Positions 10,292 to 48,722 of a stretch of DNA of 64,000 nucleotides are shown here, piece by piece. Position numbers and translations under genes: made by a program. Source of the stretch: a virus; IMG/VR virus record IMGVR_UViG_3300022752_000057, positions 1 through 64,000 of that record, one strand, 5' to 3'. The first letter of the stretch is position 1; each line of letters opens with the position of its first letter. The notes beneath the pieces are model-generated. The model saw only the letters and a list, made by a program, of their open reading frames with translations, had not been told where the DNA came from and made no database searches.

Positions 10292-10447
10292 ATGAAAACT
10301 TTTAAACAATTCCAAGAAGAGTGGAGTAATAAATATAAAAAGAGTATTGATTGCTCAAATCCGAAAGGTTTTTCTCAACGTGCTCATTGTGCAGCGAGAA
10401 GAAAAAGAGCAAAGGGTGAAGAAACTAAATCAAAACCAGTTGAGTAA
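10292..10447 (+). CDS. Small basic protein with capsid-targeting-like N-terminus (51 aa)
   Basis: A 51-residue basic protein beginning MKTFKQFQEEW. The first ten residues match the pattern of the T4 capsid-targeting sequence (MKTYQEF-type) that directs internal proteins into the prohead and is cut by the gp21 protease. The cut-site match (Q-E-E) is weaker than in its relatives at 44582 and 55947. The middle carries CSNPKGFSQRAHCAARRKR, a Cys/His/Arg-rich motif. The stop overlaps the ATG of the next gene (TAATG). It may be packaged in the head; this is inference. Confidence 0.6.
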   Translation: MKTFKQFQEEWSNKYKKSIDCSNPKGFSQRAHCAARRKRAKGEETKSKPVE

Positions 10448-13218
10448 TGCCACAGATCAAGACACATAAAACAGTTGAGCAAATTGCAAAGAAGCATCGT
10501 CTTGATGTGTCTTTTATACAAAAGCAACTTGAAATGGGCGAACCAATTGAGCATGAGCATACAAAAGATCATGACTTAGCAAAAGACATTGCACTGCAAC
10601 ATCTTGATGAAATTCCGGACTATTATACACGTCTGAAAAAAATGGAGGCAGATGCTAAAAAGCATCATAAAAAATTTAAAGATGTAAAAGAGGATGCAGA
10701 TGCTGGCGTAGATGATATGGATTCACCTTTTCATGCAGTACATTCTGTTCATGTCGATCATGACAAAAGATATTGCCCGAAATGCAAAAGGGTTGAAATG
10801 AGAAAAGAATGTAAATATGGTCCAATGTATTGGGACATGTTTTCTTTACCAAAAGAACTGAAAGAAGAAACAAAGTCTGGTGATGAAGGTCTTCATGATT
10901 GGTTTAATAAATCAAAGTCAAGTGATGGTAAAAAAGGATGGGTTCAGTTAGGTGGAAAGTGGGCAGGGAAACCATGTGCTCGTCAACCGGGACAAACTTC
11001 TACACCAAAATGTGGAAGTTCCGAAATGAAGAGATCACTTTCCAAAGATGAAGAAGAATCGGCAAGAAGAAGAAAAAATATTCAAGATCCAAATCAACCA
11101 CAAAAAACAGGTGCTGCCAAACCAACAAATGTAAGAACTGAGGACATGGATTTACAAGAAGTCAAAGACAAACCAAGTAAGGGTAGTGGTAAAAAAGACG
11201 CCTGTTACAATAAAGTAAAATCAAGATATGATGTTTGGCCAAGTGCTTATGCATGTGTTCCCGAAAAAACATCAAAATCTTTAACTAAAGAAGGATGGAA
11301 AGGTATTGATGAATTAAATATTGGAGATGATATATTAACTTATAATATTCAAAAAGATGAATTGGAATTTAAACCAATAATTAATTTACATAGATATAAA
11401 AATGTAAAAACAAATATTATCAAAAGTGGAAATAATGGATTTATTTTTGAGTCAACAGATAATCATAAATGGGTGGTAAAATTACCAGAAACTACTGGTA
11501 ATCGGATTTGTAAATATGAAAGGATAAATGATAAATCTTTAATTGAAACTAGTGAAATTTTATTAAATAAAAATAATAAACATTTAGTAGTATCAGCACC
11601 ATATTTTGGAGGGACTCCAACTAAAAGTGATAAAATTTTTAAATATGGTTCTAACTGGATTAAATATATTTTAGATATAACTCAGGAACAAAGACAATCG
11701 TGGTTATTCAGTGCTATTGTATATGATGGGAATCAACAAAAAATACAAAGATTGACAGAAAATGATGAGAATGTTAATGAGTTAGACTGGATGTATACTA
11801 GTTCTTGTGAAAACAAGCAAACTTTTGGACTTAAACAAAAAGATATTCAACACAGAGATGCATTCTTATTAGCAGCTTTTTTAAATTCGGGTTTGGTGAC
11901 TTGGAAAAAATCTCCAAATAAGAATATATATTCTTGTCATTATACAAGTAATAAAAGATTCAAAAATACATCCAACTTTAAATTAATTAAAGAAAATATT
12001 TCAGATGTTTGGTGTCCAGAAACAGAAAATGGTACTTGGGTTATGATGCAAGAAACTAATGGAAATGGCATTATAACTATAACTGGTAATTCTGGAGCAC
12101 TTGTTAAGTGTCGTAAAGTTGGTGCAGACAATTGGGGAACTAAATCGGAGGCGACCATGCACGAAGAAGAAAGATATTGCCCTTTGTGCAATAAAAGAGA
12201 AACAAGATCTGAGTGTTCCTATGGTGAAAAGGCATGGGATAAAGTTTCTGTAAAAGACCACGAATACTCAATGGTTCGTTCAGAACTTAAAACAATCATG
12301 AATGCAGCGAAAAGACTTAATGCAAAAGTAGGAAAGGGTGAAGGAAATCTTGAGGCATGGGTGCAGTCAAAAATTACTAAGGCAGCAGATTATATTGATA
12401 CAGCAGCTGATTATGTTACAAGTGGAGAGATGGAAGAGCAAAGATTAACAGATAAAATTATTGATGAAATTTTAAATGAAAAATGTTGGTCTGGTTATAA
12501 GAAAAAGGGAATGAAGACAATGTTTGGAAAAAGATATCCAAATTGTGTAAAAGCAGAAGATGTATCACTAGAAGATGCAGATGGAAATACTTTTGCAGAA
12601 GTCATTGATTTAATTAAACCAGATCCAATTCAGGGTACGGCATCACAACCAGAAAAAGTCGAAGAAATGGTGAGACTTCAGTCAGAAAATGGAAACGTTG
12701 TTGCAATTACATTATCTTGGAGAGGAAAGTATTATGCAATTCAGATGTTCTTTCCACAATCAAAACTTCCAAGTCGTCAAGAAATAGCAGCAGAAATTCA
12801 GAAGATTTATCCAGACTCAAGATTAGTTCATCATTCAGTATCTGAAATTCAACCAGGTCAACCAATTATTAGAGTTGGATATCAGGGAGGAAGTCCTGCA
12901 AAATTAGGACCAAATAAAAATTATGTAAAACCAATGGGAGAAGAAGTTGAGATTGATGAGGATTGGCAATCAGTTAATCGTAAGGATAAAACTGATGGAT
13001 TAAGTCAAGCAGCAGTAAATGCTTATCGTCGTGAGAATCCTGGTTCAAAACTCCAAACTGCAGTGACTGAAAAGAATCCATCAGGTAAAAGAGCAAAACG
13101 TCGTGCATCATTTTGCCGTAGAATGAAGGGAATGAAATCAAAACTGACTTCTGCAAAAACTTCAAGAGATCCAGATTCAAGAATTAACAAAGCACTTCGC
13201 CGTTGGAATTGTAGTTGA
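10447..13218 (+). CDS. Probable virion protein with zinc-ribbon repeats, interrupted by an intein
   Basis: A 923-residue precursor. Residues 270-548 are an intein, so the spliced product would be 644 residues. The host protein has two copies of a Cys-rich motif of the form RYCPxCxK...ExRxECxYG followed by WD (near residues 110-135 and 578-603), which look like paired zinc-binding knuckles. It also has a CWSGYKKKGMKTMFGKRYPNC motif. Its C-terminus is strongly basic (FCRRMKGMK, SRINKALRRWNCS) and resembles a small domain seen at the ends of several phage proteins (DUF6321-like, from memory). The splice junction would join PSAYA to SGALVKCRKVG. No catalytic residues are recognised. Between fibre genes and terminase, a structural or packaged role is plausible. 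Confidence 0.65.
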   Translation: MPQIKTHKTVEQIAKKHRLDVSFIQKQLEMGEPIEHEHTKDHDLAKDIALQHLDEIPDYYTRLKKMEADAKKHHKKFKDVKEDADAGVDDMDSPFHAVHSVHVDHDKRYCPKCKRVEMRKECKYGPMYWDMFSLPKELKEETKSGDEGLHDWFNKSKSSDGKKGWVQLGGKWAGKPCARQPGQTSTPKCGSSEMKRSLSKDEEESARRRKNIQDPNQPQKTGAAKPTNVRTEDMDLQEVKDKPSKGSGKKDACYNKVKSRYDVWPSAYACVPEKTSKSLTKEGWKGIDELNIGDDILTYNIQKDELEFKPIINLHRYKNVKTNIIKSGNNGFIFESTDNHKWVVKLPETTGNRICKYERINDKSLIETSEILLNKNNKHLVVSAPYFGGTPTKSDKIFKYGSNWIKYILDITQEQRQSWLFSAIVYDGNQQKIQRLTENDENVNELDWMYTSSCENKQTFGLKQKDIQHRDAFLLAAFLNSGLVTWKKSPNKNIYSCHYTSNKRFKNTSNFKLIKENISDVWCPETENGTWVMMQETNGNGIITITGNSGALVKCRKVGADNWGTKSEATMHEEERYCPLCNKRETRSECSYGEKAWDKVSVKDHEYSMVRSELKTIMNAAKRLNAKVGKGEGNLEAWVQSKITKAADYIDTAADYVTSGEMEEQRLTDKIIDEILNEKCWSGYKKKGMKTMFGKRYPNCVKAEDVSLEDADGNTFAEVIDLIKPDPIQGTASQPEKVEEMVRLQSENGNVVAITLSWRGKYYAIQMFFPQSKLPSRQEIAAEIQKIYPDSRLVHHSVSEIQPGQPIIRVGYQGGSPAKLGPNKNYVKPMGEEVEIDEDWQSVNRKDKTDGLSQAAVNAYRRENPGSKLQTAVTEKNPSGKRAKRRASFCRRMKGMKSKLTSAKTSRDPDSRINKALRRWNCS
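11254..12090 (+). mobile_element. Intein (279 aa) in the 10447 gene
   Basis: It begins with Cys (CVPEKTSKSLTKEGW), followed by IDELNIGDDILTYN, a typical intein block A. Block B has the TDNH (TxxH) motif. The C-terminal block reads ITITGN followed by Ser +1 of the extein. The residue before the terminal Asn is Gly instead of the usual His. Between the splicing halves, segments such as LFSAIVYDGN and LLAAFLNSG look like a diverged LAGLIDADG endonuclease. Base composition is even more AT-rich than the host gene. The boundaries place a continuous SAYA-SGALVKC extein at the junction. Confidence 0.85.
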
Positions 13219-13874: not shown

Positions 13875-15094
13875 TGTCTCATTTATATAAACCAAGTCAA
13901 GAACAATTTGATGCTTTTGGACGCTTAAGAACTTCAAGTCCATTAACACTTTTTGATTCTTCTCATAGATATAGAGATAATAATCTTTTTACCAGTTTGA
14001 TTGTAGGAACTGGTTCAACAGTTGGATTTGTAACGACTCAAGGTTTAGTAGATATAACTGTTGGTGTTGGAAGCACTGCATCAGTTATCAGAGAAACTAC
14101 AAAAGTATTTTCATATCAACCAGGAAAGTCATTGCAAATAATCAACACATTTGTAATGAATGCGCCAAAAACAAATCTTCGCCAAAGAGTTGGATACTTT
14201 GGTGCCGATAATGGAATTTATTTTGAGATTGATGGTTCTACTGTAAATTTTGTAGAAAGAAGTATTGTAAGTGGAACACTTACAGAAACTCATGCTCCAC
14301 AATCATCTTGGTTATATGATAAGATGGATGGAACAGGTCCTTCTGGATATACACTTGATCCATCTAAAGGACAAATTATGTGGACGGATATTGAGTGGTT
14401 GGGATTGGGAACAGTCAGAGTTGGATTTGTAATTGACGGTCAATTTATTCACTGTCATTCATTCCATCACGCAAATCTTATCCAATCAACTTATATTACA
14501 ACAGCAGCATTACCAATAAGATATGAGATTACAAACACTGGCGTTACAACCAGTGCAAGTACATTAAAACAAGTTTGTTCTACTGTATTGTCAGAAGGTG
14601 GTTATGAACTTCGTGGATTGCAACAAGCAGTTGGAACGGCAGTTACAAGCCCTGTAACTTTAGCAACAGTTGGGACAGATTATACTGTAATTTCACTTCG
14701 TTTAAAAGCATCACCAGATAGATTGGACGCAATTGTAATTTTGACTGCAGTTTCAATGTTAGGAACTACAAATAATGCAAACTATAACTGGAAAGTTGCG
14801 GCAAGTGGTATAACAAGTGGAGGAATTTGGGTAAGTGCAGGTTCTGATAGTGCTGTGGAATATAAGATTGATGGTGGAACTCATAGTGGTGGCAGAGTCC
14901 TTGCATCAGGATTTTTTAATTCATCTCAACAATCTTCAGTTCCAGTAGATATTCTAAAAGAAGCATTATTTAAATTTCAGTTAGAAAGAGATAGATTAAC
15001 TAACACACCTTATGAACTTACTTTGATATGTTCTGGTAGTACTATAAACGCACAACTTTTTGCATCAATGGATTGGGAAGAGATTAGTAGGTAA
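13874..15094 (+). CDS. Virion structural protein upstream of terminase
   Basis: A 406-residue protein beginning MSHLYKPSQEQFDAFGRLR. The ATG at 13874 overlaps the preceding stop and is preferred over in-frame codons upstream. The whole protein is beta-rich with many Gly/Thr/Ser residues, no membrane segment and no enzyme motif. The N-terminal FDAFGRLRTSSP motif is one I associate with cyanophage and other marine phage structural proteins of unknown place in the particle. It lies six bases before gene 17. Confidence 0.65.
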   Translation: MSHLYKPSQEQFDAFGRLRTSSPLTLFDSSHRYRDNNLFTSLIVGTGSTVGFVTTQGLVDITVGVGSTASVIRETTKVFSYQPGKSLQIINTFVMNAPKTNLRQRVGYFGADNGIYFEIDGSTVNFVERSIVSGTLTETHAPQSSWLYDKMDGTGPSGYTLDPSKGQIMWTDIEWLGLGTVRVGFVIDGQFIHCHSFHHANLIQSTYITTAALPIRYEITNTGVTTSASTLKQVCSTVLSEGGYELRGLQQAVGTAVTSPVTLATVGTDYTVISLRLKASPDRLDAIVILTAVSMLGTTNNANYNWKVAASGITSGGIWVSAGSDSAVEYKIDGGTHSGGRVLASGFFNSSQQSSVPVDILKEALFKFQLERDRLTNTPYELTLICSGSTINAQLFASMDWEEISR

Positions 15095-15100
15095 TTTACT

Positions 15101-16966
15101 ATGAGTGATGTATACCTTGGTAATCCGCTTTTAAAAAAAGCAAATACACAAATTGAATTTACTCAAGAACAAATACTTGAATTTGTCAAATGTAAGGATG
15201 ATCCTGTTTATTTTGCAAACAATTATGTCAAGATTGTAACTCTTGATCATGGACTGCAAACTTTTAAACCATATCATTTTCAAGAGAAATTAATTAATAA
15301 TTTCCACCAAAACAGATTTAATATCTGCAAGATGCCTCGTCAGACAGGCAAAGCTTTGTCATTAGATACACCAATTCCAACTCCAAATGGTTGGACAACT
15401 ATGGGAGATCTTAAAGTTGGCGATGACATTTTATCACCAACTGGAGATTCTGTTTCAGTTATAATGAAGACCGAAACAATGTATAATCATGATTGTTATA
15501 AAATATATTTTGATAATGGTGAAGAAATAATTGCCGATGCTGAGCATTTGTGGGAAGTGAATAGTTCGTATTGGAGAACTGGAAAAAAAGTTATAACTTC
15601 TAAGGATATATTTGACCAGTATCAATCAAAAATAAAAAATAAAAGGGGAAGAGGATTTCAAGGATCTTTATTTGTAGATAAATCAAAACCAATCAACTTT
15701 ATCAAAAATGTATTAAATATTGATCCATATCTTCTTGGTGTTTGGTTGGGTGATGGATATTCTTATGATGGAAGAATAATTGCACATAAAGACGATTACT
15801 ATTTCTATAAAGAAAAGTTTAATATAGAACATGAAAGAGAATCTAATAATTGTATTAGATTTAAAATTAAAAATTTACATTCCAAGTTAAAAGAGTATAA
15901 CTTAATTAAAAATAAACACATTCCACTAAAATATCTCCGTTCATCCTATGAAGACAGATTGGAACTTCTTCGTGGTTTAATGGATACTGATGGATCTGTT
16001 AGAAAAAACAGCAGATCATTTGAATTTTATCAAAAAAATTATGATTTAATCTTACAGGTTGTTGAGTTACTTTCTTCTCTTGGTATAAAATCAACTGTAA
16101 GACGAAAAGAAATTAAAGGAAATTTTTATTACACTGTATCTTTTTCAACTAAAGAAAGAGTATTTAATCTTCCAAGAAAGATTAAAAATATAAATTTAAA
16201 AAAGTCAGAAAGAAAGCAAGAAAGTAGACATTATATTCATAGAATAGAAAAAGTTGATAGTGTACCAGTTGCATGTATACAAGTTAATAGTGAAGATCAT
16301 TTATTTTTGTGTGGTAAAACTTTTATTCCTACACATAATTCAACAACTGTTGTTGCATTTCTTTTGCACTATGCAGTTTTTAACGATAATGTAAATATTG
16401 GTATTCTTGCAAACAAAGCAGCTACTGCAAGAGAACTTTTAGATAGATTGCAGACTGCATATGAGAATCTACCAAAGTGGATGCAGCAAGGTATTATTTC
16501 TTGGAATAAAGGTTCTTTAGAGTTAGAAAATGGATCAAAGATTTTAGCAGCATCCACATCAGCATCTGCTGTTCGTGGTATGTCTTTTAATATTTTGTTC
16601 TTGGATGAATTTGCATTCGTTCCAAATCATATTGCTGATTCTTTCTTCGCATCCGTTTATCCAACAATTACTTCAGGTAAACAAACTAAAGTTATTATAG
16701 TTTCCACTCCACATGGTATGAATCACTTCTACCGAATGTGGCATGATGCAGAAAAAGGAAAAAATGAATATGTTTATACTGATGTTCATTGGTCTGAAGT
16801 TCCTGGTAGAGATGATGAGTGGAAAAAGCAAACAATTGCAAACACATCTGAACAACAGTTTAAAGTTGAGTTTGAATGCTTGGGTGGAGAAACTTTAATA
16901 GAAATACAAGATGATAATGAAAGTATCAGTAAAATATCTATGGAAGATTTATATGATAGAATGTGA
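15101..16966 (+). CDS. 17: Terminase large subunit gp17, N-terminal part with internal intein and N-half of a split intein
   Basis: ATPase half of the DNA-packaging motor. The 621-residue polypeptide contains, in order: N-extein 1-84, ending in the P-loop MPRQTGK; a complete intein 85-413; the rest of the ATPase domain 414-592, restarting STTVVAFLL, with Walker B ILFLDEFAF near residue 500 and the coupling motif VIIVSTPHG; and a 29-residue N-terminal half-intein 593-621 starting CLGGETLIE. The stop at 16964 is therefore not the end of the terminase: the nuclease half lies at 17556-18719. Two excisions (one in cis, one in trans) are needed to make a functional protein of about 547 residues, a normal size for cyanophage gp17. 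Confidence 0.92.
   Translation: MSDVYLGNPLLKKANTQIEFTQEQILEFVKCKDDPVYFANNYVKIVTLDHGLQTFKPYHFQEKLINNFHQNRFNICKMPRQTGKALSLDTPIPTPNGWTTMGDLKVGDDILSPTGDSVSVIMKTETMYNHDCYKIYFDNGEEIIADAEHLWEVNSSYWRTGKKVITSKDIFDQYQSKIKNKRGRGFQGSLFVDKSKPINFIKNVLNIDPYLLGVWLGDGYSYDGRIIAHKDDYYFYKEKFNIEHERESNNCIRFKIKNLHSKLKEYNLIKNKHIPLKYLRSSYEDRLELLRGLMDTDGSVRKNSRSFEFYQKNYDLILQVVELLSSLGIKSTVRRKEIKGNFYYTVSFSTKERVFNLPRKIKNINLKKSERKQESRHYIHRIEKVDSVPVACIQVNSEDHLFLCGKTFIPTHNSTTVVAFLLHYAVFNDNVNIGILANKAATARELLDRLQTAYENLPKWMQQGIISWNKGSLELENGSKILAASTSASAVRGMSFNILFLDEFAFVPNHIADSFFASVYPTITSGKQTKVIIVSTPHGMNHFYRMWHDAEKGKNEYVYTDVHWSEVPGRDDEWKKQTIANTSEQQFKVEFECLGGETLIEIQDDNESISKISMEDLYDRM
15353..16339 (+). mobile_element. Class-3-like LAGLIDADG intein in the gp17 P-loop
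   Basis: 329 codons inserted between Lys and Ser-Thr of the Walker A motif (RQTGK / STTVV). The first residue is Ala rather than Cys or Ser (ALSLDTPIPTPNGW). The class 3 signature Trp-Cys-Thr can be read: Trp in block B (AEHLWEV), Cys in block F (VPVACIQV) and Thr in block G (IPTHN). Two dodecapeptides, LLGVWLGDGY and LLRGLMDTDGS, identify a LAGLIDADG homing endonuclease domain. It ends His-Asn with Ser +1. The class assignment follows the published Trp-Cys-Thr rule and would need splicing tests. Confidence 0.88.
16877..16963 (+). mobile_element. N-half of split terminase intein (29 aa)
   Basis: Begins with the nucleophile Cys after VEFE and runs only 29 residues (block A, CLGGETLIEI) to the stop. 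A very short N-half paired with a roughly 100-residue C-half matches the atypically split AceL-TerL intein described from a viral metagenome, also in a terminase. Confidence 0.85.
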
Positions 16967-16976
16967 ATTTCTTGGA
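16959..16976 (+). repeat. Relic copy of the terminase extein junction in a shifted frame
   Basis: In the +1 frame, overlapping the stop of the N-half gene, the sequence reads GAA TGT GAA TTT CTT GGA = ECEFLG. This is exactly the peptide of the uninterrupted terminase at this site (E from 16874-16876 plus CEFLG at 17865). It looks like a duplicated target site left by the insertion. Confidence 0.6.
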
Positions 16977-16977
16977 T

Positions 16978-16985
16978 TATAAATA
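16978..16985 (+). promoter_or_regulatory. T4-type late promoter for the GIY-YIG gene
   Basis: A perfect TATAAATA octamer, 8 bases before the endonuclease ATG at 16994. It gives the endonuclease gene its own late promoter inside the broken terminase gene. The short distance leaves a very short leader. Confidence 0.55.
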
Positions 16986-16993
16986 GTAATAAA

Positions 16994-17563
16994 ATGTATT
17001 ATATCTATTTTCTTAAAGATTTAAATAACAAAGTTCAGTATATTGGACAAACTCAAAATCCAGATACTAGAAGAAGAGAACATAAAAGAAATAAACCACC
17101 ACATACTTTTGAATTGATAGAGCAACTTCAAGTTTCATTGGAAGCAAAAAATTTGGAAATCGAATACATAAAAAAATATGATACTTATAAAAATGGATGG
17201 AATAAATCTCCAGGAGGAGAAGGATTTGAAAACTATGATAGAAGTGGTATTGGTGGCGTAAAGAAAGGGAATATACCTTGGAATAAAGATGTTAAGCATT
17301 GTTTTTCCGAAGAAACAATCAATAAAATGAAATCTGCGAGAAAAGGTAGAGTTTTTAGTAGAAAAATAACTGATGATCAAATTAAAGAAATAAGAGATTT
17401 ATATGAAAAAAGTCCTCATTTGAATGATGTTGGTTTAATAATGAAAAATGGCAAAAAAATGTCATATATACAATCATTTTGTAAAGAATATTGCAGTAAA
17501 TATAATATAACTCCACAAGGAATGAAAAGAATTATTTTGAGAGAGTGTTGGAAAAATGTTTAA
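16994..17563 (+). CDS. GIY-YIG homing endonuclease between the split intein halves
   Basis: 189 residues. The first 30 residues carry the GIY-YIG module: YIYFL, then VQYIGQTQNPDTRRREHKR with the catalytic Arg and the conserved Gly-x-Thr. The middle has SEETINKMKSARKGR, a NUMOD3-like DNA-binding motif, followed by a Lys-rich C-terminal region with a possible helix-turn-helix. It starts 27 bases after the N-half stop, and its end overlaps the ATG of the C-half gene by 8 bases, so translation of the C-half may be coupled to it. A free-standing endonuclease here would cut intein-less or uninterrupted gene 17 in co-infecting phages and spread the whole cassette. Fusion to the intein is excluded by the stops. 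Confidence 0.88.
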   Translation: MYYIYFLKDLNNKVQYIGQTQNPDTRRREHKRNKPPHTFELIEQLQVSLEAKNLEIEYIKKYDTYKNGWNKSPGGEGFENYDRSGIGGVKKGNIPWNKDVKHCFSEETINKMKSARKGRVFSRKITDDQIKEIRDLYEKSPHLNDVGLIMKNGKKMSYIQSFCKEYCSKYNITPQGMKRIILRECWKNV

Positions 17564-17864
17564 ACTTAATAAAAAATTTCAAGTAAAAACTCCAACGGGG
17601 TTTAAATATTTTTCAGGAATTCAAAAAGTCTATAAACCATTTTATCATCAAATAATTTTTGATGATGGTACTGAAATAAAGTGTTCGGATAAACATGCTT
17701 TTGGGGCAGAAAAAATAAGAGCAGATTCAATAAAAGTAGATGATATTATACAAGGAAAAAAAGTTGTATATAATGAAATTGTAGAAAAAGGAATATATCT
17801 TTATGATCTACTTGATGTTGGAGAAGATAATCTTTACTATTCAAACAATCTTATCTCACACAAT
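17556..17864 (+). mobile_element. C-half of split terminase intein (103 aa)
   Basis: Begins MFKLNKKFQVKTPTGFKYF and ends NLISHN with Cys +1 of the extein. Block B reads CSDKH, so Cys stands where Thr is usual. Block F has LYDLLDV and the penultimate His is present. Length and sequence feel closely match the 104-residue C-half of AceL-TerL (from memory). Confidence 0.85.
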
Positions 17865-18719
17865 TGTGAATTCTTAGGATCTGTTGATACACTAATTGCA
17901 CCATCTAAACTCAGAAACCTCGTCTACGACCACCCCAAGACCCGTAGTGCAGGTTTAGATGTTTATGTGGATCCTGAAGAGAATCATGACTATTTGATTA
18001 CTGTAGACGTTGCTAGAGGTGTAGGGAATGATTATTCAGCATTTACCGTAATTGATATTACACAATTTCCTCATAGAGTTGTAGCAAAATATAGAAACAA
18101 TGAAATTAAACCAATGCTGTTTCCAAGTATTATTAGTGAAATTGGAAAAAGTTACAGCGATGCATATATTTTATGTGAGGTAAATGATGTTGGAGATCAA
18201 GTAGCAAGTATTCTTCAGTATGACTTGGAATATAAAAATCTTTTGATGTGTTCTATGCGGGGAAGAGCAGGACAAATTGTTGGACAAGGATTTTCTGGAA
18301 AGAAAACTCAACTTGGAGTTAAGATGTCCAAGACTGTAAAAAAAGTTGGATGTCTCAATCTTAAAACAATGATTGAGGAAGACAAGTTATACTTAAATGA
18401 TTATGAGATTATTTCAGAATTAACAACATTTATACAAAAACATAATTCATTTGAGGCAGAAGAAGGTTGCAATGATGACCTAGCAATGTGTTTAGTCATA
18501 TATGCTTGGTTAGTTGCACAAGATTATTTTAAAGAACTTACGGATCAAGATGTAAGAAAACGTTTATATGAAGAACAAAAAAATCAAATTGAGCAGGATA
18601 TGTCTCCATTTGGATTTATATCTGATGGATTAGACTCAAATAGTTTTGTTGATGTTGATGGCGATAGATGGTTTGTTGATGAGTATGGTGATCGTTCTTA
18701 CATGTGGGAGTACATGTAA
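17556..18719 (+). CDS. 17: Terminase large subunit gp17, C-terminal part: C-half of split intein plus nuclease domain
   Basis: 387 residues. Residues 1-103 are the C-terminal half-intein, and residues 104-387 are the terminase C-extein starting CEFLGSVDTLI. The RNase H-like nuclease domain that cuts concatemeric DNA is visible: Asp in YLITVDVARGVGNDYSAF, Glu in ILCEVNDVGDQ and the distal Asp in CNDDLAMCLVIYAW. Trans-splicing with the protein encoded at 15101-16966 would fuse ATPase and nuclease. The ATG lies inside the end of the GIY-YIG gene. Without splicing the two enzymatic domains stay on separate polypeptides, each with a half-intein attached. Confidence 0.92.
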   Translation: MFKLNKKFQVKTPTGFKYFSGIQKVYKPFYHQIIFDDGTEIKCSDKHAFGAEKIRADSIKVDDIIQGKKVVYNEIVEKGIYLYDLLDVGEDNLYYSNNLISHNCEFLGSVDTLIAPSKLRNLVYDHPKTRSAGLDVYVDPEENHDYLITVDVARGVGNDYSAFTVIDITQFPHRVVAKYRNNEIKPMLFPSIISEIGKSYSDAYILCEVNDVGDQVASILQYDLEYKNLLMCSMRGRAGQIVGQGFSGKKTQLGVKMSKTVKKVGCLNLKTMIEEDKLYLNDYEIISELTTFIQKHNSFEAEEGCNDDLAMCLVIYAWLVAQDYFKELTDQDVRKRLYEEQKNQIEQDMSPFGFISDGLDSNSFVDVDGDRWFVDEYGDRSYMWEYM

Positions 18720-18950
18720 ATGGACTTAGATGATCAAATCAAATTGGGGCATCTTCTTCTTGTTGATAGAAAATGTAGGTCATGTGGCGAATTAAAAAAT
18801 TTAGTAGATGAATTTTATCGTACAAGAAAAAATAGAGGACATGTCGCATCTTCATATTCTTACGAATGTAAGGATTGTACTAAAAAAAGAATAGTTAAAG
18901 GGAGAGTAAAAACTGTAGTTTTTGATAGATGGCAATATCCTGACTGGTAG
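18720..18950 (+). CDS. Small zinc-finger-like protein downstream of terminase
   Basis: A 76-residue protein whose ATG directly follows the terminase stop. Four cysteines in two pairs, CRSCGE near residue 19 and CKDCTKK near residue 55, suggest a zinc-binding treble-clef or ribbon fold. The region between is basic (RTRKNRGH). Cys pairs about 30 residues apart resemble HNH-associated or HicA-like zinc knuckles, but no HNH histidines are seen. It could assist packaging or bind nucleic acid; this is unproven. Confidence 0.65.
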   Translation: MDLDDQIKLGHLLLVDRKCRSCGELKNLVDEFYRTRKNRGHVASSYSYECKDCTKKRIVKGRVKTVVFDRWQYPDW

Positions 18951-18992
18951 TGCTTGTTCATGCACGGTTTCCCCTATGAAAAGTATTTTTTT

Positions 18993-19000
18993 AATAAATA
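18993..19000 (+). promoter_or_regulatory. Late-promoter-like octamer before gp18
   Basis: AATAAATA in the 85-base gap between the zinc-finger gene and the tail sheath gene, 35 bases before the sheath ATG, which has its own GGAG site. Confidence 0.5.
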
Positions 19001-19035
19001 TTTTTTAGATAAACTGAGAATTTACGGAGAAAAAC

Positions 19036-21252
19036 ATGGCGACTCCTCAATTATCTCCAGGCGTACTCGTCAGAGAGGTTGACTTAACAGTAGGAAGAGC
19101 TGATAATGTTTTAGATAATATTGGTGCAATTGCTGGACCTTTTCCAATTGGACCTGTTGACTACCCAATTGATATTACTACGGAACAAGATTTAATCAAC
19201 GTATTTGGCAAACCACTGTCTACAGATGCTCAATACGAATATTGGATGTCTGCAGCATCTTACCTTTCATATGGTGGAGTTCTTAAGGTTGTTAGAACTG
19301 GTGGCAATGCTTTAAGAACTGCAACTGCTGGTGTAGGATCTGCATTAACAACATTACAATTAGATAACTATGATGATTATCAAAATAATCATCAAAATGA
19401 TACAACTTGGTATTATGCTGCTAAGAATGAAGGAACTTGGGCAAATAACTTAAAAGTATGTGTGATTGACGATCTTGCAGATCAAAGAATCGCAATTACA
19501 ACAGCAGCTGCTTCTTTAAATGCCGCAGTTGGACTTGGAGTTAGTTTAAGTCTCTCAAATGTCACTATTGCTGGAGTTGGAACAACATCATCATTCAGTG
19601 GATATTTAAAAGGAATTATCACTGGTATTTCCACAAGTTCATCTACTGGAACTTCCACTCTTGATGTTAAAATTGTTTCCAGAGTATCCTCTACAGGAAC
19701 GGAAACCAAAATCACTTATGCAGAAAATACTGCATATGCAGCATTTGGCACTGGATCTGTTAGTGGAGTAGGAACGACTTTTAGTATCGTAAGTGCCGCT
19801 GGTACAATCCTTGGTCTTACTACAATTTCATCAGTCTCTGACTGGTATAATGAGCAAACTTTAGGATTAACAAACTCAACAATTTATTGGAAGTCAATTG
19901 CACCAAAACCAACTACAACTCAGTATGCAGCAAATAGAAATGGCAGAAATGATGGCATTCACGTTGTTGTAGTTGATGATCTTGGAACTATCACAGGAAT
20001 TCAAGGAAATATTATTGAAAAACATGTAGGACTCTCAAAGGCAGTTGATGCAGTTTCTGCAGTCAATTCTCCACAAAAAATATGGTATAAAAATTACATC
20101 GCAGATTTCTCTGCAAATATTTTTGCTGGACACAATCCTTCTGCTGCTGCAGATTCCCATCAAGGTACAACTCCAACAGCAACTGGATTTACAACATATT
20201 CTGGAGTTGCTTCTGCATCATTTGTTGCAATATCAACAGCAAATGGTCTTTGGAATCAAAATGCTCAAGACGTAACATTCAGTTCTGTAGGAAACAAAAC
20301 ATACACGTTAACGAGTGGTGTTGATTATTCTTCTGGTGGTGGAATGGCAGCAGATCTTGGAAGTCTTGTCACATCTTATAATTTGTTTAGTAATAAAGAT
20401 CAAATTGCAGTTGATTATTTAATCATGGGACCTGGATTGGGAAGCAAAGATCTTTCTCAAGCAAAAGCTAATCATTTAATTAGTGTTGCGGAGGCAAGAA
20501 AAGACTGTGTTGCATGTATTGGTCCGCACAGAGCAGACCTAGTTAACATCACAAATACAACAACTCAAACAACAAATCTTGTTACATACTTTAGTCCGAT
20601 TAGTTCTTCGTCATACGCAATTTTTGACAGTGGATATAAGTACACATACGACAGATTTAATAACCAATTTAGATATATTCCATGTAATGCAGATGTTGCT
20701 GGTTTAATGTGTCGTACAAATATTGTTGCATATCCTTGGTTCTCTCCAGCAGGACAGCAAAGAGGTGTTCTAAACAACGTTGTTAAACTTGCATACAATC
20801 CATCAAAGGCTCAGAGAGATCAACTTTATCCTCAAAGAGTGAATGCGATTATCACAAAACCAGGTGTTGGAACGATTCTATTTGGTGATAAAACTGCACT
20901 TGGTTATGCATCAGCATTTGATAGAATCAATGTTCGCCGTCTGTTCCTCACAATTGAGCAAGCACTCCAAAGAGCTGCAGATGCTCAACTATTTGAGTTA
21001 AATGATGAATTAACAAGAGCCAACTTTAGAAATATTGTTGAGCCATACCTGAGAGATGTTGAGGCAAAACGAGGACTCTATGGATTCCTGGTTGTTTGCG
21101 ATACATCAAACAATACTCCTGATGTTATCGATAACAATGAGTTTAGAGCAGATATTTATCTGAAACCAGCTAAATCAATTAATTATGTAACGCTTACTTT
21201 TGTTGCTACAAGAACTGGCGTAAGTTTCGAAGAAGTAGCAGGTAGAGTTTAA
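19036..21252 (+). CDS. 18: Tail sheath protein gp18
   Basis: 738 residues, near the length of T4 gp18 (659) and typical for cyanophage sheaths. It starts MATPQLSPGVLVREVDLT, the conserved sheath N-terminal arm motif (SPGVxVxExD). The C-terminal third contains the conserved core, with SPAGQQRG, VNAIITKPGVGTILFGDKT, INVRRLFLTIEQAL and a C-terminal strand before EEVAGRV. It polymerises around the gp19 tube and contracts on infection. The middle (about residues 110-330) is Ser/Thr/Gly-rich and is likely the variable surface domain. It is followed by the tube gene after 35 bases, as in T4. Confidence 0.95.
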   Translation: MATPQLSPGVLVREVDLTVGRADNVLDNIGAIAGPFPIGPVDYPIDITTEQDLINVFGKPLSTDAQYEYWMSAASYLSYGGVLKVVRTGGNALRTATAGVGSALTTLQLDNYDDYQNNHQNDTTWYYAAKNEGTWANNLKVCVIDDLADQRIAITTAAASLNAAVGLGVSLSLSNVTIAGVGTTSSFSGYLKGIITGISTSSSTGTSTLDVKIVSRVSSTGTETKITYAENTAYAAFGTGSVSGVGTTFSIVSAAGTILGLTTISSVSDWYNEQTLGLTNSTIYWKSIAPKPTTTQYAANRNGRNDGIHVVVVDDLGTITGIQGNIIEKHVGLSKAVDAVSAVNSPQKIWYKNYIADFSANIFAGHNPSAAADSHQGTTPTATGFTTYSGVASASFVAISTANGLWNQNAQDVTFSSVGNKTYTLTSGVDYSSGGGMAADLGSLVTSYNLFSNKDQIAVDYLIMGPGLGSKDLSQAKANHLISVAEARKDCVACIGPHRADLVNITNTTTQTTNLVTYFSPISSSSYAIFDSGYKYTYDRFNNQFRYIPCNADVAGLMCRTNIVAYPWFSPAGQQRGVLNNVVKLAYNPSKAQRDQLYPQRVNAIITKPGVGTILFGDKTALGYASAFDRINVRRLFLTIEQALQRAADAQLFELNDELTRANFRNIVEPYLRDVEAKRGLYGFLVVCDTSNNTPDVIDNNEFRADIYLKPAKSINYVTLTFVATRTGVSFEEVAGRV

Positions 21253-45242: not shown

Positions 45243-45441
45243 GGAAGTTGGTTCTGAAATTGGGGAACCTGACTGTAGGTTAATTAAACCATTTGTGGTA
45301 AGAAGTGACCAAACAATGGAACCATTTCTTTGCGGATATACAAAACAATCTACTTTTATGATGAGTTCGGATAAGATTCTCACTCTTGTCGATCCGACTC
45401 CAACACTTCTTGAAAAATATGAGGATTTGATTAAAGAATGA
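45211..45441 (+). CDS. Small protein before gp43 (76 aa)
   Basis: From ATG 45211 (MNNLILISQIEEVGSEIGEPD); an ATG at 45178 would overlap the upstream gene further. It continues GEPDCRLIKPFVVRSDQTMEPFLC and MMSSDKILTLVDPTPTLLEKYEDL. The ISSDKI-LTLVDP segment is conserved upstream of cyanophage gp43 as I recall. It overlaps both neighbours (ATGA with gp43). No named function. Confidence 0.65.
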   Translation: MNNLILISQIEEVGSEIGEPDCRLIKPFVVRSDQTMEPFLCGYTKQSTFMMSSDKILTLVDPTPTLLEKYEDLIKE

Positions 45442-46919
45442 CACAACGGTTTTATACTAATGTTCAGTTGATTGGAAATCAATTTTTAGTTCGTGGAGTC
45501 GAGAATGGGAAAAGATTTGAAAATAGAGATGAGTTTTTTCCTACATTATATGTAAAAACTAAAAAACAATCTAAGTATAAAACCTTAAATGGAGAATCTG
45601 TGGAACCAGTAAATCCTGGTACAGTTAGAGATTGTCGTGAGTTTTATAGTAAATATGATGGAGTAGATGGATTTGAAATCTATGGCAATGATAGATATAT
45701 TTGCCAATATATTTCAGAAAAATATCCAGAAGATGAAATTAAGTTTGATATTAGTAAAATCAAACTTGTAACTTTGGATATTGAGGTAGCATCTGAATCT
45801 GGATTCCCCGATGTAGAATCTTGTTCAGAGGAGATTCTTTCAATTTCAATTCAGGATTATACAACAAAAAAAATTATTACATGGGGAGTAAAACCTTTTA
45901 ACAATTCTCGTAAGGACGTAACTTATCATTGTTGTCCTTCTGAATACGAACTTCTCAATCATTTTATTAATTATTGGATGGTTGATGTTCCTGATGTGAT
46001 TACTGGTTGGAATATTCAGTTATATGATATTCCCTACATTTGCAAAAGACTGAATCGCGTTCTTGGCGAGAAGTTAATGAAGAGAATGTCTAATTGGGGA
46101 CTTGTTACAGAAGGGGAAGTGTTTATAAATGGGCGTAAACATACTGTGTTTGATATTGGTGGTCTTACTCAATTAGACTATTTGGATTTGTATAAAAAGT
46201 TTACTTATAAAGCTCAAGAATCTTATCGCTTGGATTATATTGCAGAAGTAGAACTTGGGCAGAAAAAATTGGATCACTCTGAGTTTGATACTTTTAAAGA
46301 TTTTTATACTAAAGGGTGGCAAAAGTTTATTGAGTACAATATTATTGACGTAGAACTTGTTGACCGTCTGGAAGACAAGATGAAATTAATCGAACTTGCC
46401 CTAACGATGGCATATGATGCTAAGGTAAATTATGCTGATGTTTTTTATCAAGTTCGAATGTGGGATAATATCATCTATAACTATCTTAAAAAAAGAAACA
46501 TTGTAATTCCTCAAAAGCAAAAAACCGATAAAGATTCTAAGTATGCTGGTGCTTATGTAAAGGAACCTATTCCGGGTAAGTATGATTGGGTTGTAAGTTT
46601 TGATTTAACATCTCTATATCCTTCCCTCATTATGCAATATAATATTTCTCCAGAAACTCTTCTTGATGAAAAATATCCAGGAGTAACTGTTGACAAATTA
46701 TTAAATAAAAAAATTATTATTGAAAATGTTGAGGGGAAGTGTGTGTGTGCAAATGGTTGTTTGTATGATACATCTAAAAGGGGAATATTTCCTGAACTTG
46801 TAGAAAAAATTTTTAATGATAGGCAATATTTTAAAAAAGAAATGCTGAAGGAAAAATCTAGATTGGAAGAGATTGAAAGTGAATTGAAGAAAAGAAAAAT
46901 TGATTTAAATACTTTATAA
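45438..46919 (+). CDS. 43: DNA polymerase gp43, N-terminal subunit (exonuclease and palm motif A)
   Basis: 493 residues of a family B polymerase. 3'-5' exonuclease motifs: VTLDIEVASESGFPD (DxE) near 115, the ITGWNIQLYDIPY motif near 190, and YNIIDVELVDRL near 300. Polymerase motif A, SFDLTSLYPSLIMQYNISPETLL, is near 385. The chain then ends in a Lys/Glu-rich helix (EEIESELKKRK) at a stop codon, in the fingers region before motif B. Motifs B and C are in the gene at 47613. Intact cyanophage gp43 is about 830-860 residues; here 493 + 369. No intein signature at either edge, so the enzyme must work as two chains. Confidence 0.92.
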   Translation: MTQRFYTNVQLIGNQFLVRGVENGKRFENRDEFFPTLYVKTKKQSKYKTLNGESVEPVNPGTVRDCREFYSKYDGVDGFEIYGNDRYICQYISEKYPEDEIKFDISKIKLVTLDIEVASESGFPDVESCSEEILSISIQDYTTKKIITWGVKPFNNSRKDVTYHCCPSEYELLNHFINYWMVDVPDVITGWNIQLYDIPYICKRLNRVLGEKLMKRMSNWGLVTEGEVFINGRKHTVFDIGGLTQLDYLDLYKKFTYKAQESYRLDYIAEVELGQKKLDHSEFDTFKDFYTKGWQKFIEYNIIDVELVDRLEDKMKLIELALTMAYDAKVNYADVFYQVRMWDNIIYNYLKKRNIVIPQKQKTDKDSKYAGAYVKEPIPGKYDWVVSFDLTSLYPSLIMQYNISPETLLDEKYPGVTVDKLLNKKIIIENVEGKCVCANGCLYDTSKRGIFPELVEKIFNDRQYFKKEMLKEKSRLEEIESELKKRKIDLNTL

Positions 46920-46927
46920 TATAAATA
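46920..46927 (+). promoter_or_regulatory. T4-type late promoter for the HNH gene
   Basis: A perfect TATAAATA directly after the first gp43 stop, 21 bases before the endonuclease ATG. The second free-standing endonuclease of the window with its own late octamer. Confidence 0.6.
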
Positions 46928-46948: not shown

Positions 46949-47623
46949 ATGAATTATTTAAAGACTTATTGTAAGTTAATTAGAAATGCAGAAAATAGAA
47001 ATTGGAAAAGAAAACATACTAATTTTTATATTGAAGAACATCATACTTTTCCAATTTCAATTTATGGAAAAAATGATAGGATAGTTGGGTTGACTCCAAG
47101 AGAACATTTTCTGGCACATTGGTTACTTTACAAAATTTGTTTAAAACGATATGGAGTAAGAACTGGCAAAACATTTAGTATGGGTTCTGCTTTTGCTATG
47201 ATGTGCGTTACTAATGATTTGCAAGAAAGAAATTATACTTCTAGAAAGTATGAAATAGTTAGAAATTGCTTATCTACCATAAGAACTGGAAAATCTAGAA
47301 ATGATATGAAAGGAAAAAAATACTTTGGGGCGAGTGAAGATGTTATAAAAAAAGGTATAGAAAAAATGAGGGAAAAGAAAACTGGAATGAAAATAGAATA
47401 TCCAAAAAATAGAAAATCTTCTCCCTGTTCGTCAGAAAAGATGAAAAAAATATCAGAAACTAGAAAAAATACAAGAATTAAATTTATTTCTATGAGTGAA
47501 GAAGAATTTAATTTATGGATTTCTAAACAAAATCTTTATAGAAAAGATGGTGCAAGAAATTCAAACGTTACTCGCACATTAATGTGGAGAAACATTCCTT
47601 TGGAGAAATATTATGGAACTTGA
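46949..47623 (+). CDS. HNH homing endonuclease (MobE-like) splitting gp43
   Basis: 224 residues. The HNH core is YIEEHHTFPISIYGKNDRIV followed by LTPREHFLAHWLLYKI, the pattern of T4 MobE-type free-standing endonucleases (EHH, then REHFxAHxLL). C-terminal segments ASEDVIKKGIEKMREK and SSEKMKKISETRKN resemble NUMOD3 DNA-binding motifs. It lies between the gp43 halves and overlaps the ATG of the second half by 11 bases. Base composition is more AT-rich than gp43. It probably entered an intact gene 43 and broke it into two. Confidence 0.88.
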   Translation: MNYLKTYCKLIRNAENRNWKRKHTNFYIEEHHTFPISIYGKNDRIVGLTPREHFLAHWLLYKICLKRYGVRTGKTFSMGSAFAMMCVTNDLQERNYTSRKYEIVRNCLSTIRTGKSRNDMKGKKYFGASEDVIKKGIEKMREKKTGMKIEYPKNRKSSPCSSEKMKKISETRKNTRIKFISMSEEEFNLWISKQNLYRKDGARNSNVTRTLMWRNIPLEKYYGT

Positions 47624-48722
47624 TTATTCTAAAATTTCAACAGATGAATTGAAAAAACTTCGCCAAAATTGCATTAAAAATATTTCAAAATATACCAATA
47701 ATCAAATGGCAAGAAAAATTCAAATTAATAGTTTGTACGGAGCAATAGGAAATCAGTATTTCCGCTATTATAAACTAGCAAACGCTGAGGCAATCACCTT
47801 GTCTGGTCAGGTTTCTATCCGTTGGATTGAGAACAAGATGAATGCCTACCTGAATAAAATTCTCAAAACTGATGGTGTTGATTATGTTATTGCTTCAGAT
47901 ACTGACTCTATCTATCTTAATATGGGTCCTTTGGTTGAAACTGTATACCAAGGAAGAGAGAAAACTACTGAAAGCATTGTTTCGTTCCTTGATAAGATCT
48001 GTCAGGTGGAACTTGAAAAGTATATTGAGAGTTGTTACCAAGAACTGGCTGAGTATGTAAATGCTTATGACCAGAAGATGCAGATGAAGCGTGAGAACAT
48101 TGCTGATCGTGGAATCTGGACTGCTAAAAAGCGTTATATTCTTAATGTCTGGGATAGTGAAGGTGTTCGTTACGAAGAGCCTAAACTGAAAATCATGGGC
48201 ATTGAGGCAATTAAATCATCCACTCCTGCACCTTGCCGTAAAATGATTAAGGATGCTCTGAAATTGATGATGAGTGGAACAGAAGATGATGTAGTTAATT
48301 TTATTGACAAATGTCGTAAACAATTTAAAGAAATTTCTCCGCAAGAGATTGCCTTTCCCAGAACTGCTTCTGATGTTCGTAAGTATCAATCATCATTTGA
48401 AATTTACAACAAAGGAACACCAATTCATGTTCGTGGAGCACTTCTGTTTAATCATTATATAAAAGAAAAGAAATTGACAAATAAATATTCACTTATTGCA
48501 AATGGAGAAAAAATCAAGTTTGTATATTTAAAAAAACCAAATATTATTCATGAAAATGTTATTTCATTTATCCAAGATTTTCCAAAAGAACTTGGTCTTG
48601 ACAAATACATAGATTATGATTTACAATTTGAGAAAGCATTTTTAGAACCACTTAAAACAATTTTAAATTCTATTGGATGGAATATAGAAAAAACTAATAC
48701 TTTAGAGGCATTCTTTCTATGA
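47613..48722 (+). CDS. 43: DNA polymerase gp43, C-terminal subunit (motifs B and C, thumb)
   Basis: 369 residues. Begins MELDYSKISTDELKKLRQN, a fingers helix, then motif B ARKIQINSLYGAIGNQYFRYYK (near 30) and motif C IASDTDSIYL (near 90) with two catalytic aspartates. The thumb with KKRYILNVWDSEGVRY and KIMGIEAIKSSTP follows, and the C-terminal NTLEAFFL is the clamp-binding tail typical of gp43. With the 45438 chain it would rebuild a complete active site: motif A comes from one chain, motif C from the other. Split gp43 is known in some Aeromonas T4-like phages. Confidence 0.92.
   Translation: MELDYSKISTDELKKLRQNCIKNISKYTNNQMARKIQINSLYGAIGNQYFRYYKLANAEAITLSGQVSIRWIENKMNAYLNKILKTDGVDYVIASDTDSIYLNMGPLVETVYQGREKTTESIVSFLDKICQVELEKYIESCYQELAEYVNAYDQKMQMKRENIADRGIWTAKKRYILNVWDSEGVRYEEPKLKIMGIEAIKSSTPAPCRKMIKDALKLMMSGTEDDVVNFIDKCRKQFKEISPQEIAFPRTASDVRKYQSSFEIYNKGTPIHVRGALLFNHYIKEKKLTNKYSLIANGEKIKFVYLKKPNIIHENVISFIQDFPKELGLDKYIDYDLQFEKAFLEPLKTILNSIGWNIEKTNTLEAFFL

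What the first reader, a model, noticed from the sequence alone, without database searches (positions are those of the whole stretch)
15101..18719. Terminase gene broken by two different inteins and a homing endonuclease
The gene carries a complete LAGLIDADG intein in the P-loop and, before the nuclease domain, a split intein whose halves (29 aa and 103 aa) flank a separate GIY-YIG gene. Making one gp17 needs one cis- and one trans-splicing event from two polypeptides. The split halves resemble the AceL-TerL atypical split intein; the combination with an intact GIY-YIG gene between the halves and a second intein in the same protein may be new.
Basis: partly seen in the sequence, partly recalled or inferred. 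Interest (0 to 1): 0.9.

Follow-up and report, generated by a model that had tools for sequence, protein, structure and literature searches.

The report
Fractured phage terminase with self-targeting operator
In a virus of marine cyanobacteria the gene for the DNA-packaging motor carries one self-cutting protein insert and is also split in two by a second one with a DNA-cutting mobile gene in the gap; that mobile gene seems to carry a copy of its own target site next to its promoter, probably as an off switch.

Summary
A T4-like cyanophage terminase gene (gp17) holds (i) an intact LAGLIDADG intein in the P-loop (15353-16339) and (ii) an atypical split intein of AceL/Cat-TerL type (29 + 103 aa) around a GIY-YIG gene (16994-17563). 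It is not an assembly error: the layout recurs in 65 distinct public sequences under purifying selection, 13 of which also have the P-loop intein. So the combination is not unique; Vibrio phage VP-1 and Campylobacter phage CP21 show similar ones. Refinements: the P-loop intein is class 3; the element moves between phages (extein and intein trees conflict, AU p=0.0005; empty alleles exist); the HEG has been lost about five times, once with re-fusion into a contiguous mini-intein. New: between the IntN stop and the GIY-YIG start lies a 19-bp near-copy of the uninterrupted homing site (window: 19/19 identical to real empty sites) abutting a T4-type late promoter TATAAATA; 64 of 65 elements carry it (16/19 or more), and most or all of it has gone from every HEG-less derivative. 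This matches the I-TevI autorepressor design, which I did not find described for an intein or fractured gene. Four relatives have terminase in three polypeptides with two split inteins. Splicing, binding and repression are inferred.

The parts
15101..15352 (+). TerL (gp17) extein 1, up to the P-loop ...MPRQTGK
   Evidence: collinear with intein-free TerL
15353..16339 (+). Class 3 cis-splicing intein with LAGLIDADG endonuclease in the P-loop (Ala1; W in HLWEV, C in VACIQV, T in FIPTHN; next residue Ser)
   Evidence: PDB class 3 DnaB inteins 6bs8 E=1e-26 and 6rix E=8e-25, triplet aligned; LAGLIDADG_3 E=5e-13; conserved in relatives
16340..16876 (+). TerL extein 2 (ATPase, Terminase_6N), ends ...KVEFE
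   Evidence: median dN/dS 0.06
16877..16963 (+). IntN, 29 aa, of an atypical class 1 split intein (Cys1); stop TGA follows at 16964
   Evidence: median dN/dS 0.32
16959..16977 (+). Homing-site copy GAATGTGAATTTCTTGGAT (equals ...E|CEFLG of the uninterrupted gene); proposed operator of the GIY-YIG endonuclease
   Evidence: 19/19 identical to empty sites; shuffled copies reach at most 15; 64 of 65 elements at least 16/19
16978..16985 (+). T4-type late promoter TATAAATA, abutting the site copy
   Evidence: NATAAATA: 26 on + strand, 2 on - strand of the window, many about 28-44 nt before start codons; TATAAATA in 62 of 65 elements, abutting in 61
16994..17563 (+). GIY-YIG homing endonuclease gene, 189 aa; C-terminal helical region predicted, likely DNA-binding
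   Evidence: Pfam GIY-YIG E=6e-8; 17 homologues keep GIY, YIG, Arg26, Glu76; median dN/dS 0.16; C-terminal helices at high pLDDT
17556..17864 (+). IntC, 103 aa, of the split intein; start codon overlaps the end of the GIY-YIG gene
   Evidence: 75% identical to engineered CatC, PDB 6dsl, E=5e-49; median dN/dS 0.08
17865..18719 (+). TerL extein 3 (RNase H-like nuclease, Terminase_6C), begins CEFLGS
   Evidence: E=5e-16

Best explanation
This is a 'fractured gene': a terminase whose product is rebuilt by one cis splice (class 3 intein in the P-loop) and one trans splice (AceL/Cat-TerL-type split intein) from two polypeptides. The GIY-YIG gene between the split halves is the mobility engine: it is expected to cut intein-free terL genes at the E|C site so that repair copies IntN-GIY-IntC into them. 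The gene carries its own late promoter, and directly before it a copy of its own target site. I propose that the endonuclease binds this copy and shuts off the promoter, as I-TevI does in phage T4, without cutting efficiently because the copy covers only about -3 to +16 and lacks the outer cleavage determinants. Shown here: anatomy, conservation, mobility by tree conflict, loss of promoter and most of the site copy with the HEG. Inferred: splicing activity, endonuclease target, operator function.
For: Intein halves and class 3 features. Purifying selection on IntN, GIY and IntC. Horizontal transfer: IntC groups window+L001+L002 at 100/99 (in a set with L274 and L276), exteins reject that trio (AU p=0.0005); empty alleles sit among the closest exteins. 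Every GIY homologue detected by its own scan sits in a split terL. Site copy: 64 of 65 elements match a real empty site at 16/19 or better, 61 abut TATAAATA exactly; its noncoding part varies at 0.07 against 0.33 at GIY third codon positions, 1 of 100,000 samples as low. HEG-less alleles L013, L077, L250, L278, L280 have lost the promoter and the copy beyond about +6. Precedent: the I-TevI operator is 15/20 identical to its homing site, overlaps a late promoter and is cut about 100-fold less (PMC2988022).
Against: No splicing, binding or expression data. Positions +1 to +5 of the copy also encode the last IntN codon and stop, so part of the conservation has another cause. TATAAATA lies only 16 nt before the GIY start, leaving almost no leader for that gene (other genes here have about 28). 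The most diverged GIY with a readable spacer (L274, 49% identity) lacks copy and promoter. The match of variable positions between copy and extein is only suggestive (permutation p=0.03). AlphaFold model weak (pLDDT 65), fold search gave nothing.
Confidence: 0.72

Rival explanations
1. Same fractured terminase, but the site copy is a scar of how the HEG entered the intein, kept by linkage to the stop codon and promoter, with no regulatory role.
For: Positions 1-5 supply the IntN stop; the copy is part of the mobile element and inherited with it; L274 does without it.
Against: Noncoding positions +6 to +16 are about 4.6 times less variable than GIY third positions; the copy persists partly in L276 whose GIY is only 52% identical; it shrinks to a few bases when the HEG is lost.
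Confidence: 0.22
2. The conserved spacer is a promoter or RNA element serving expression of the essential C-terminal terminase half, not endonuclease autoregulation.
For: TATAAATA is nearly invariant, and GIY plus IntC-terminase lie downstream as one unit.
Against: HEG-less split alleles have lost promoter and most of the copy while keeping the C half; the spacer RNA folds no better than shuffles, z=-0.19; sequence upstream of other NATAAATA sites in the window does not resemble the copy.
Confidence: 0.1
3. The two halves work as separate subunits without trans-splicing, or the gene is a broken remnant.
For: gp43 in this window is split without any intein, so two-subunit enzymes may occur in this phage.
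Against: Splice-site residues are invariant and both intein halves are under purifying selection; the closest solved homologue CatC belongs to an active engineered split intein.
Confidence: 0.05
4. A group I intron or an assembly error explains the interruption.
For: GIY-YIG genes are common in group I introns.
Against: No Rfam intron match in 14900-19100; flanks are intein halves; 65 distinct sequences agree.
Confidence: 0.01

Closest known systems
AceL-TerL / GOS-TerL / Cat-TerL atypical split inteins
   Same: Terminase host, very short IntN (25, 37, 30 aa) and IntC of 104-115 aa (PMC11766414); IntC 75% identical to CatC, PDB 6dsl
   Different: Here the natural locus is resolved in its phage context with the HEG, promoter, site copy and a second, class 3 intein in the same protein
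Fractured genes with split inteins and HEGs (Dassa et al. 2009; AceL NrdHF)
   Same: HEG placed between the halves of a split intein; AceL NrdHF has a GIY-YIG gene there (PMC7891396)
   Different: AceL NrdHF is split at the canonical site, class 3, in an RNR gene; a site-copy operator was not mentioned in the passages read. Dassa 2009 could not be read here
I-TevI autorepression (T4 td intron)
   Same: GIY-YIG endonuclease, homing-site-like sequence at a late promoter before its own gene (PMC2988022)
   Different: I-TevI sits in a self-splicing RNA intron; here the context is a split intein; binding not tested
Class 3 inteins (Msm DnaBi1, PDB 6bs8)
   Same: Ala1, W/C/T triplet; most class 3 inteins carry a LAGLIDADG domain (PMC7891396)
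   Different: Shares its host protein with a class 1 split intein
Vibrio phage VP-1 terminase (MH363700)
   Same: Split intein at the equivalent nuclease-side site with GIY-YIG, plus a P-loop mini-intein
   Different: IntN is fused in frame to the GIY-YIG domain; IntC about 40% identical; P-loop intein begins with Cys

Membership tests
AceL/Cat-TerL atypical split intein | IntN of about 25-37 aa ending in a stop, IntC of about 104 aa starting its own ORF | tested here: met
   29 and 103 aa
AceL/Cat-TerL atypical split intein | Sequence homology to the family and insertion before C in terminase | tested here: met
   75% identity to CatC; E|CEFLG site
AceL/Cat-TerL atypical split intein | Class 1 residues: Cys1, F-block Asp, His-Asn end, Cys+1 | tested here: met
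AceL/Cat-TerL atypical split intein | Trans-splicing activity | not testable with these tools
   needs co-expression
Class 3 intein | No nucleophile at position 1, WCT triplet | tested here: met
   definition in PMC7891396
Class 3 intein | Splicing through block F Cys | not testable with these tools
   needs mutagenesis
GIY-YIG homing endonuclease | GIY...YIG motif with catalytic Arg and Glu | tested here: met
GIY-YIG homing endonuclease | Cleavage and homing into the empty allele | not testable with these tools
   tree conflict and empty alleles are consistent
I-TevI-type autorepressor | Homing-site-like sequence at the promoter of the HEG | tested here: met
I-TevI-type autorepressor | Protein binds the copy without efficient cutting and represses | not testable with these tools
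   needs gel shift and reporter assay

The most novel reading that the evidence does not exclude
Mobile fractured-gene inteins evolved the same control as intron HEGs: the GIY-YIG endonuclease represses itself, and perhaps the downstream half of the terminase, by binding a maintained copy of its homing site at a late promoter. It would be the first such case found outside RNA introns, as far as the searched library shows.
Probability: 0.55. Interest if true: 0.72.

Novelty: new variant of a known kind. Interest (0 to 1): 0.62.

Why it matters
It gives natural loci for a split intein type used in protein labelling, with dozens of variants. It shows several stages of an intein cycle in one gene: empty site, HEG-bearing split intein, HEG-less split intein, re-fused mini-intein, and three-piece terminases that would need two trans-splices. 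The operator hypothesis predicts that target specificity and self-regulation are tied together in the element, and can be tested with one purified protein and two short DNA probes.

Tried and rejected
Group I intron: no Rfam match. RNA hairpin over the GIY start: not better than shuffles. Readthrough fusing IntN to GIY: in frame in the window, but spacer length changes the frame in relatives. GIY gene elsewhere in genomes: none found; all homologues in split terL. Fold of the GIY protein: low confidence, fold search without usable match. Dassa 2009 not held in the library; literature searches found no site-copy operator for an intein HEG.

Full report
What is there. The window is part of a 71-kb virus record; tail sheath and T4-type portal genes follow the terminase, and its terminase is closest, among named phages, to Synechococcus/Prochlorococcus T4-like phages. 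The terminase large subunit gene is spread over 15101-18719. Pfam finds Terminase_6N and LAGLIDADG_3 in the first, GIY-YIG in the second, Terminase_6C in the third. Leaving out 15353-16339 and 16877-17864 gives a 547-aa protein that aligns end to end with uninterrupted terminases up to 96% identical.

The P-loop intein. It begins with Ala after RQTGK and ends FIPTHN before Ser. Its best solved relatives are class 3 DnaB mini-inteins (6bs8 E=1e-26), and the class-defining Trp, Cys and Thr align. Relatives keep the triplet. Both LAGLIDADG motifs (LLGVWLGDG, LLRGLMDTDG) are readable in the sequence.

The split intein. IntN is 29 aa, IntC 103 aa. IntC is 75% identical to CatC, an engineered consensus intein with a solved structure (6dsl). 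AceL-TerL (25/104), Cat-TerL (30/104) and GOS-TerL (37/115) are reported in PMC11766414. A fractured gene with a GIY-YIG gene inside a split intein is reported for AceL NrdHF (PMC7891396). The kind is therefore known.

Not an artefact, not unique. A scan with IntC returned 80 viral loci; nearly all long enough show IntN, a 189-aa GIY-YIG gene 65-90% identical, and IntC overlapping its end. Counting exact duplicates once there are 65 distinct spacer+GIY sequences, 13 with the class 3 P-loop intein as well. In 34 non-redundant loci median dN/dS is 0.06 (extein), 0.32 (IntN), 0.16 (GIY) and 0.08 (IntC). Residues expected to be catalytic in GIY are invariant in 17 homologues.

Mobility. Empty alleles are common; all 80 fetched were chosen for matching an uninterrupted query, so this says nothing about frequency. 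Extein and GIY distances correlate weakly (Spearman 0.38), GIY and IntC strongly (0.79). IntC places the window with L001 and L002 in a set supported 100/99 (with L274 and L276); exteins reject a window+L001+L002 clade (AU p=0.0005), and the window's extein sits among empty alleles. The group was chosen after seeing the IntC relationships, from other data than the exteins tested.

HEG loss and re-fusion. L013, L077, L250 (same deletion in L253 and L260) and L278 have lost the GIY gene but keep both halves as separate ORFs; L280 reads through in frame as a contiguous mini-intein. Parsimony counts five changes; direction is inferred from nesting within HEG-bearing rows and is least sure for L278 and L280. 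At the same site L242/L243 carry a different, apparently Vsr-like nuclease in the gap (judged from the sequence, not from a family search).

The site copy. Between the IntN stop and the GIY start the window reads GAATGTGAATTTCTTGGAT TATAAATA (the first bases overlap the IntN end and stop). The first 19 bases equal the uninterrupted extein junction (E|CEFLG) of intein-free phages, 19/19; shuffled copies reach 15 at most. Of 65 distinct elements 64 match a real empty site at 16/19 or better, 62 have TATAAATA, 61 with no base between. Noncoding positions +6 to +16 differ at 0.072 per pair against 0.334 at GIY third positions; 1 in 100,000 samples of third positions is as low. NATAAATA occurs 26 times on the + strand and twice on the other, many about 28-44 nt before genes, so it is a plausible late promoter of this phage. 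In HEG-less alleles the promoter and all but the first bases of the copy are gone. In T4 the I-TevI operator has 15/20 identity to its homing site, overlaps a late promoter, binds with equal affinity and is cut about 100-fold less (PMC2988022). I therefore think the copy is an operator. This is inference; a neutral scar is the main rival, and positions 1-5 also serve the IntN stop.

Three-piece terminases. In L041, L189, L052 (=L315) and L055 the P-loop site holds another split intein (IntN about 40 aa, IntC about 115 aa) with a nuclease gene of DUF559/Vsr-like type or its remnant, and the second site holds the GIY split intein. The terminase is then encoded in three ORFs (L055: 985-1359, 2343-3314, 3889-5070) and would need two trans-splices. 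L189 is a fragment that ends before the C-terminal part. L320 seems similar with another nuclease-associated intein at the second site. Engineered three-segment tandem trans-splicing is published (PMC12707363); whether a natural double-split protein has been reported before I could not establish.

Verdict. Observation confirmed, interpretation largely right but the claimed novelty is not; the added points of interest are the conserved homing-site copy at a late promoter and the three-piece relatives.

Noticed in passing
window 45438-46919, 46949-47623, 47613-48722: DNA polymerase gp43 is also fractured: two polB parts with a 224-aa HNH-looking gene (no Pfam match) between, with TATAAATA at 46920, and no intein. 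Two essential genes broken in one window.
   Followed up: partly
window 10447-13218: A DUF5661/DUF6321 protein contains what looks like an intein (starts ...SAYA|CVPEKT, ends ITGN|SGALVK; weak Hint match, Gly where His is usual).
   Followed up: no
L055 985-5070; L041 2782-6215; also L052, L189: Terminase in three polypeptides by two different split inteins, each with its own nuclease gene (a remnant in L041).
   Followed up: partly
L280 3330-3707: Contiguous, HEG-less version of the same intein, apparently re-fused.
   Followed up: partly
L083 2010-4859, L086 2010-4862, L084 3498-4826, L085 1118-5404: Cultured Yersinia, Salmonella and Campylobacter phages have terL split at the Walker B region with intein-like ends; in L083/L086 a nuclease-like ORF lies between; CP21 appears to have three inteins in terL. 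Annotated as separate terminase or hypothetical genes.
   Followed up: partly
L013 4408-4515, L250 3957-3977: HEG deletions in separate lineages end at the same point (TGTGAG) and leave GAGG before the IntC start, perhaps making a new ribosome site.
   Followed up: no
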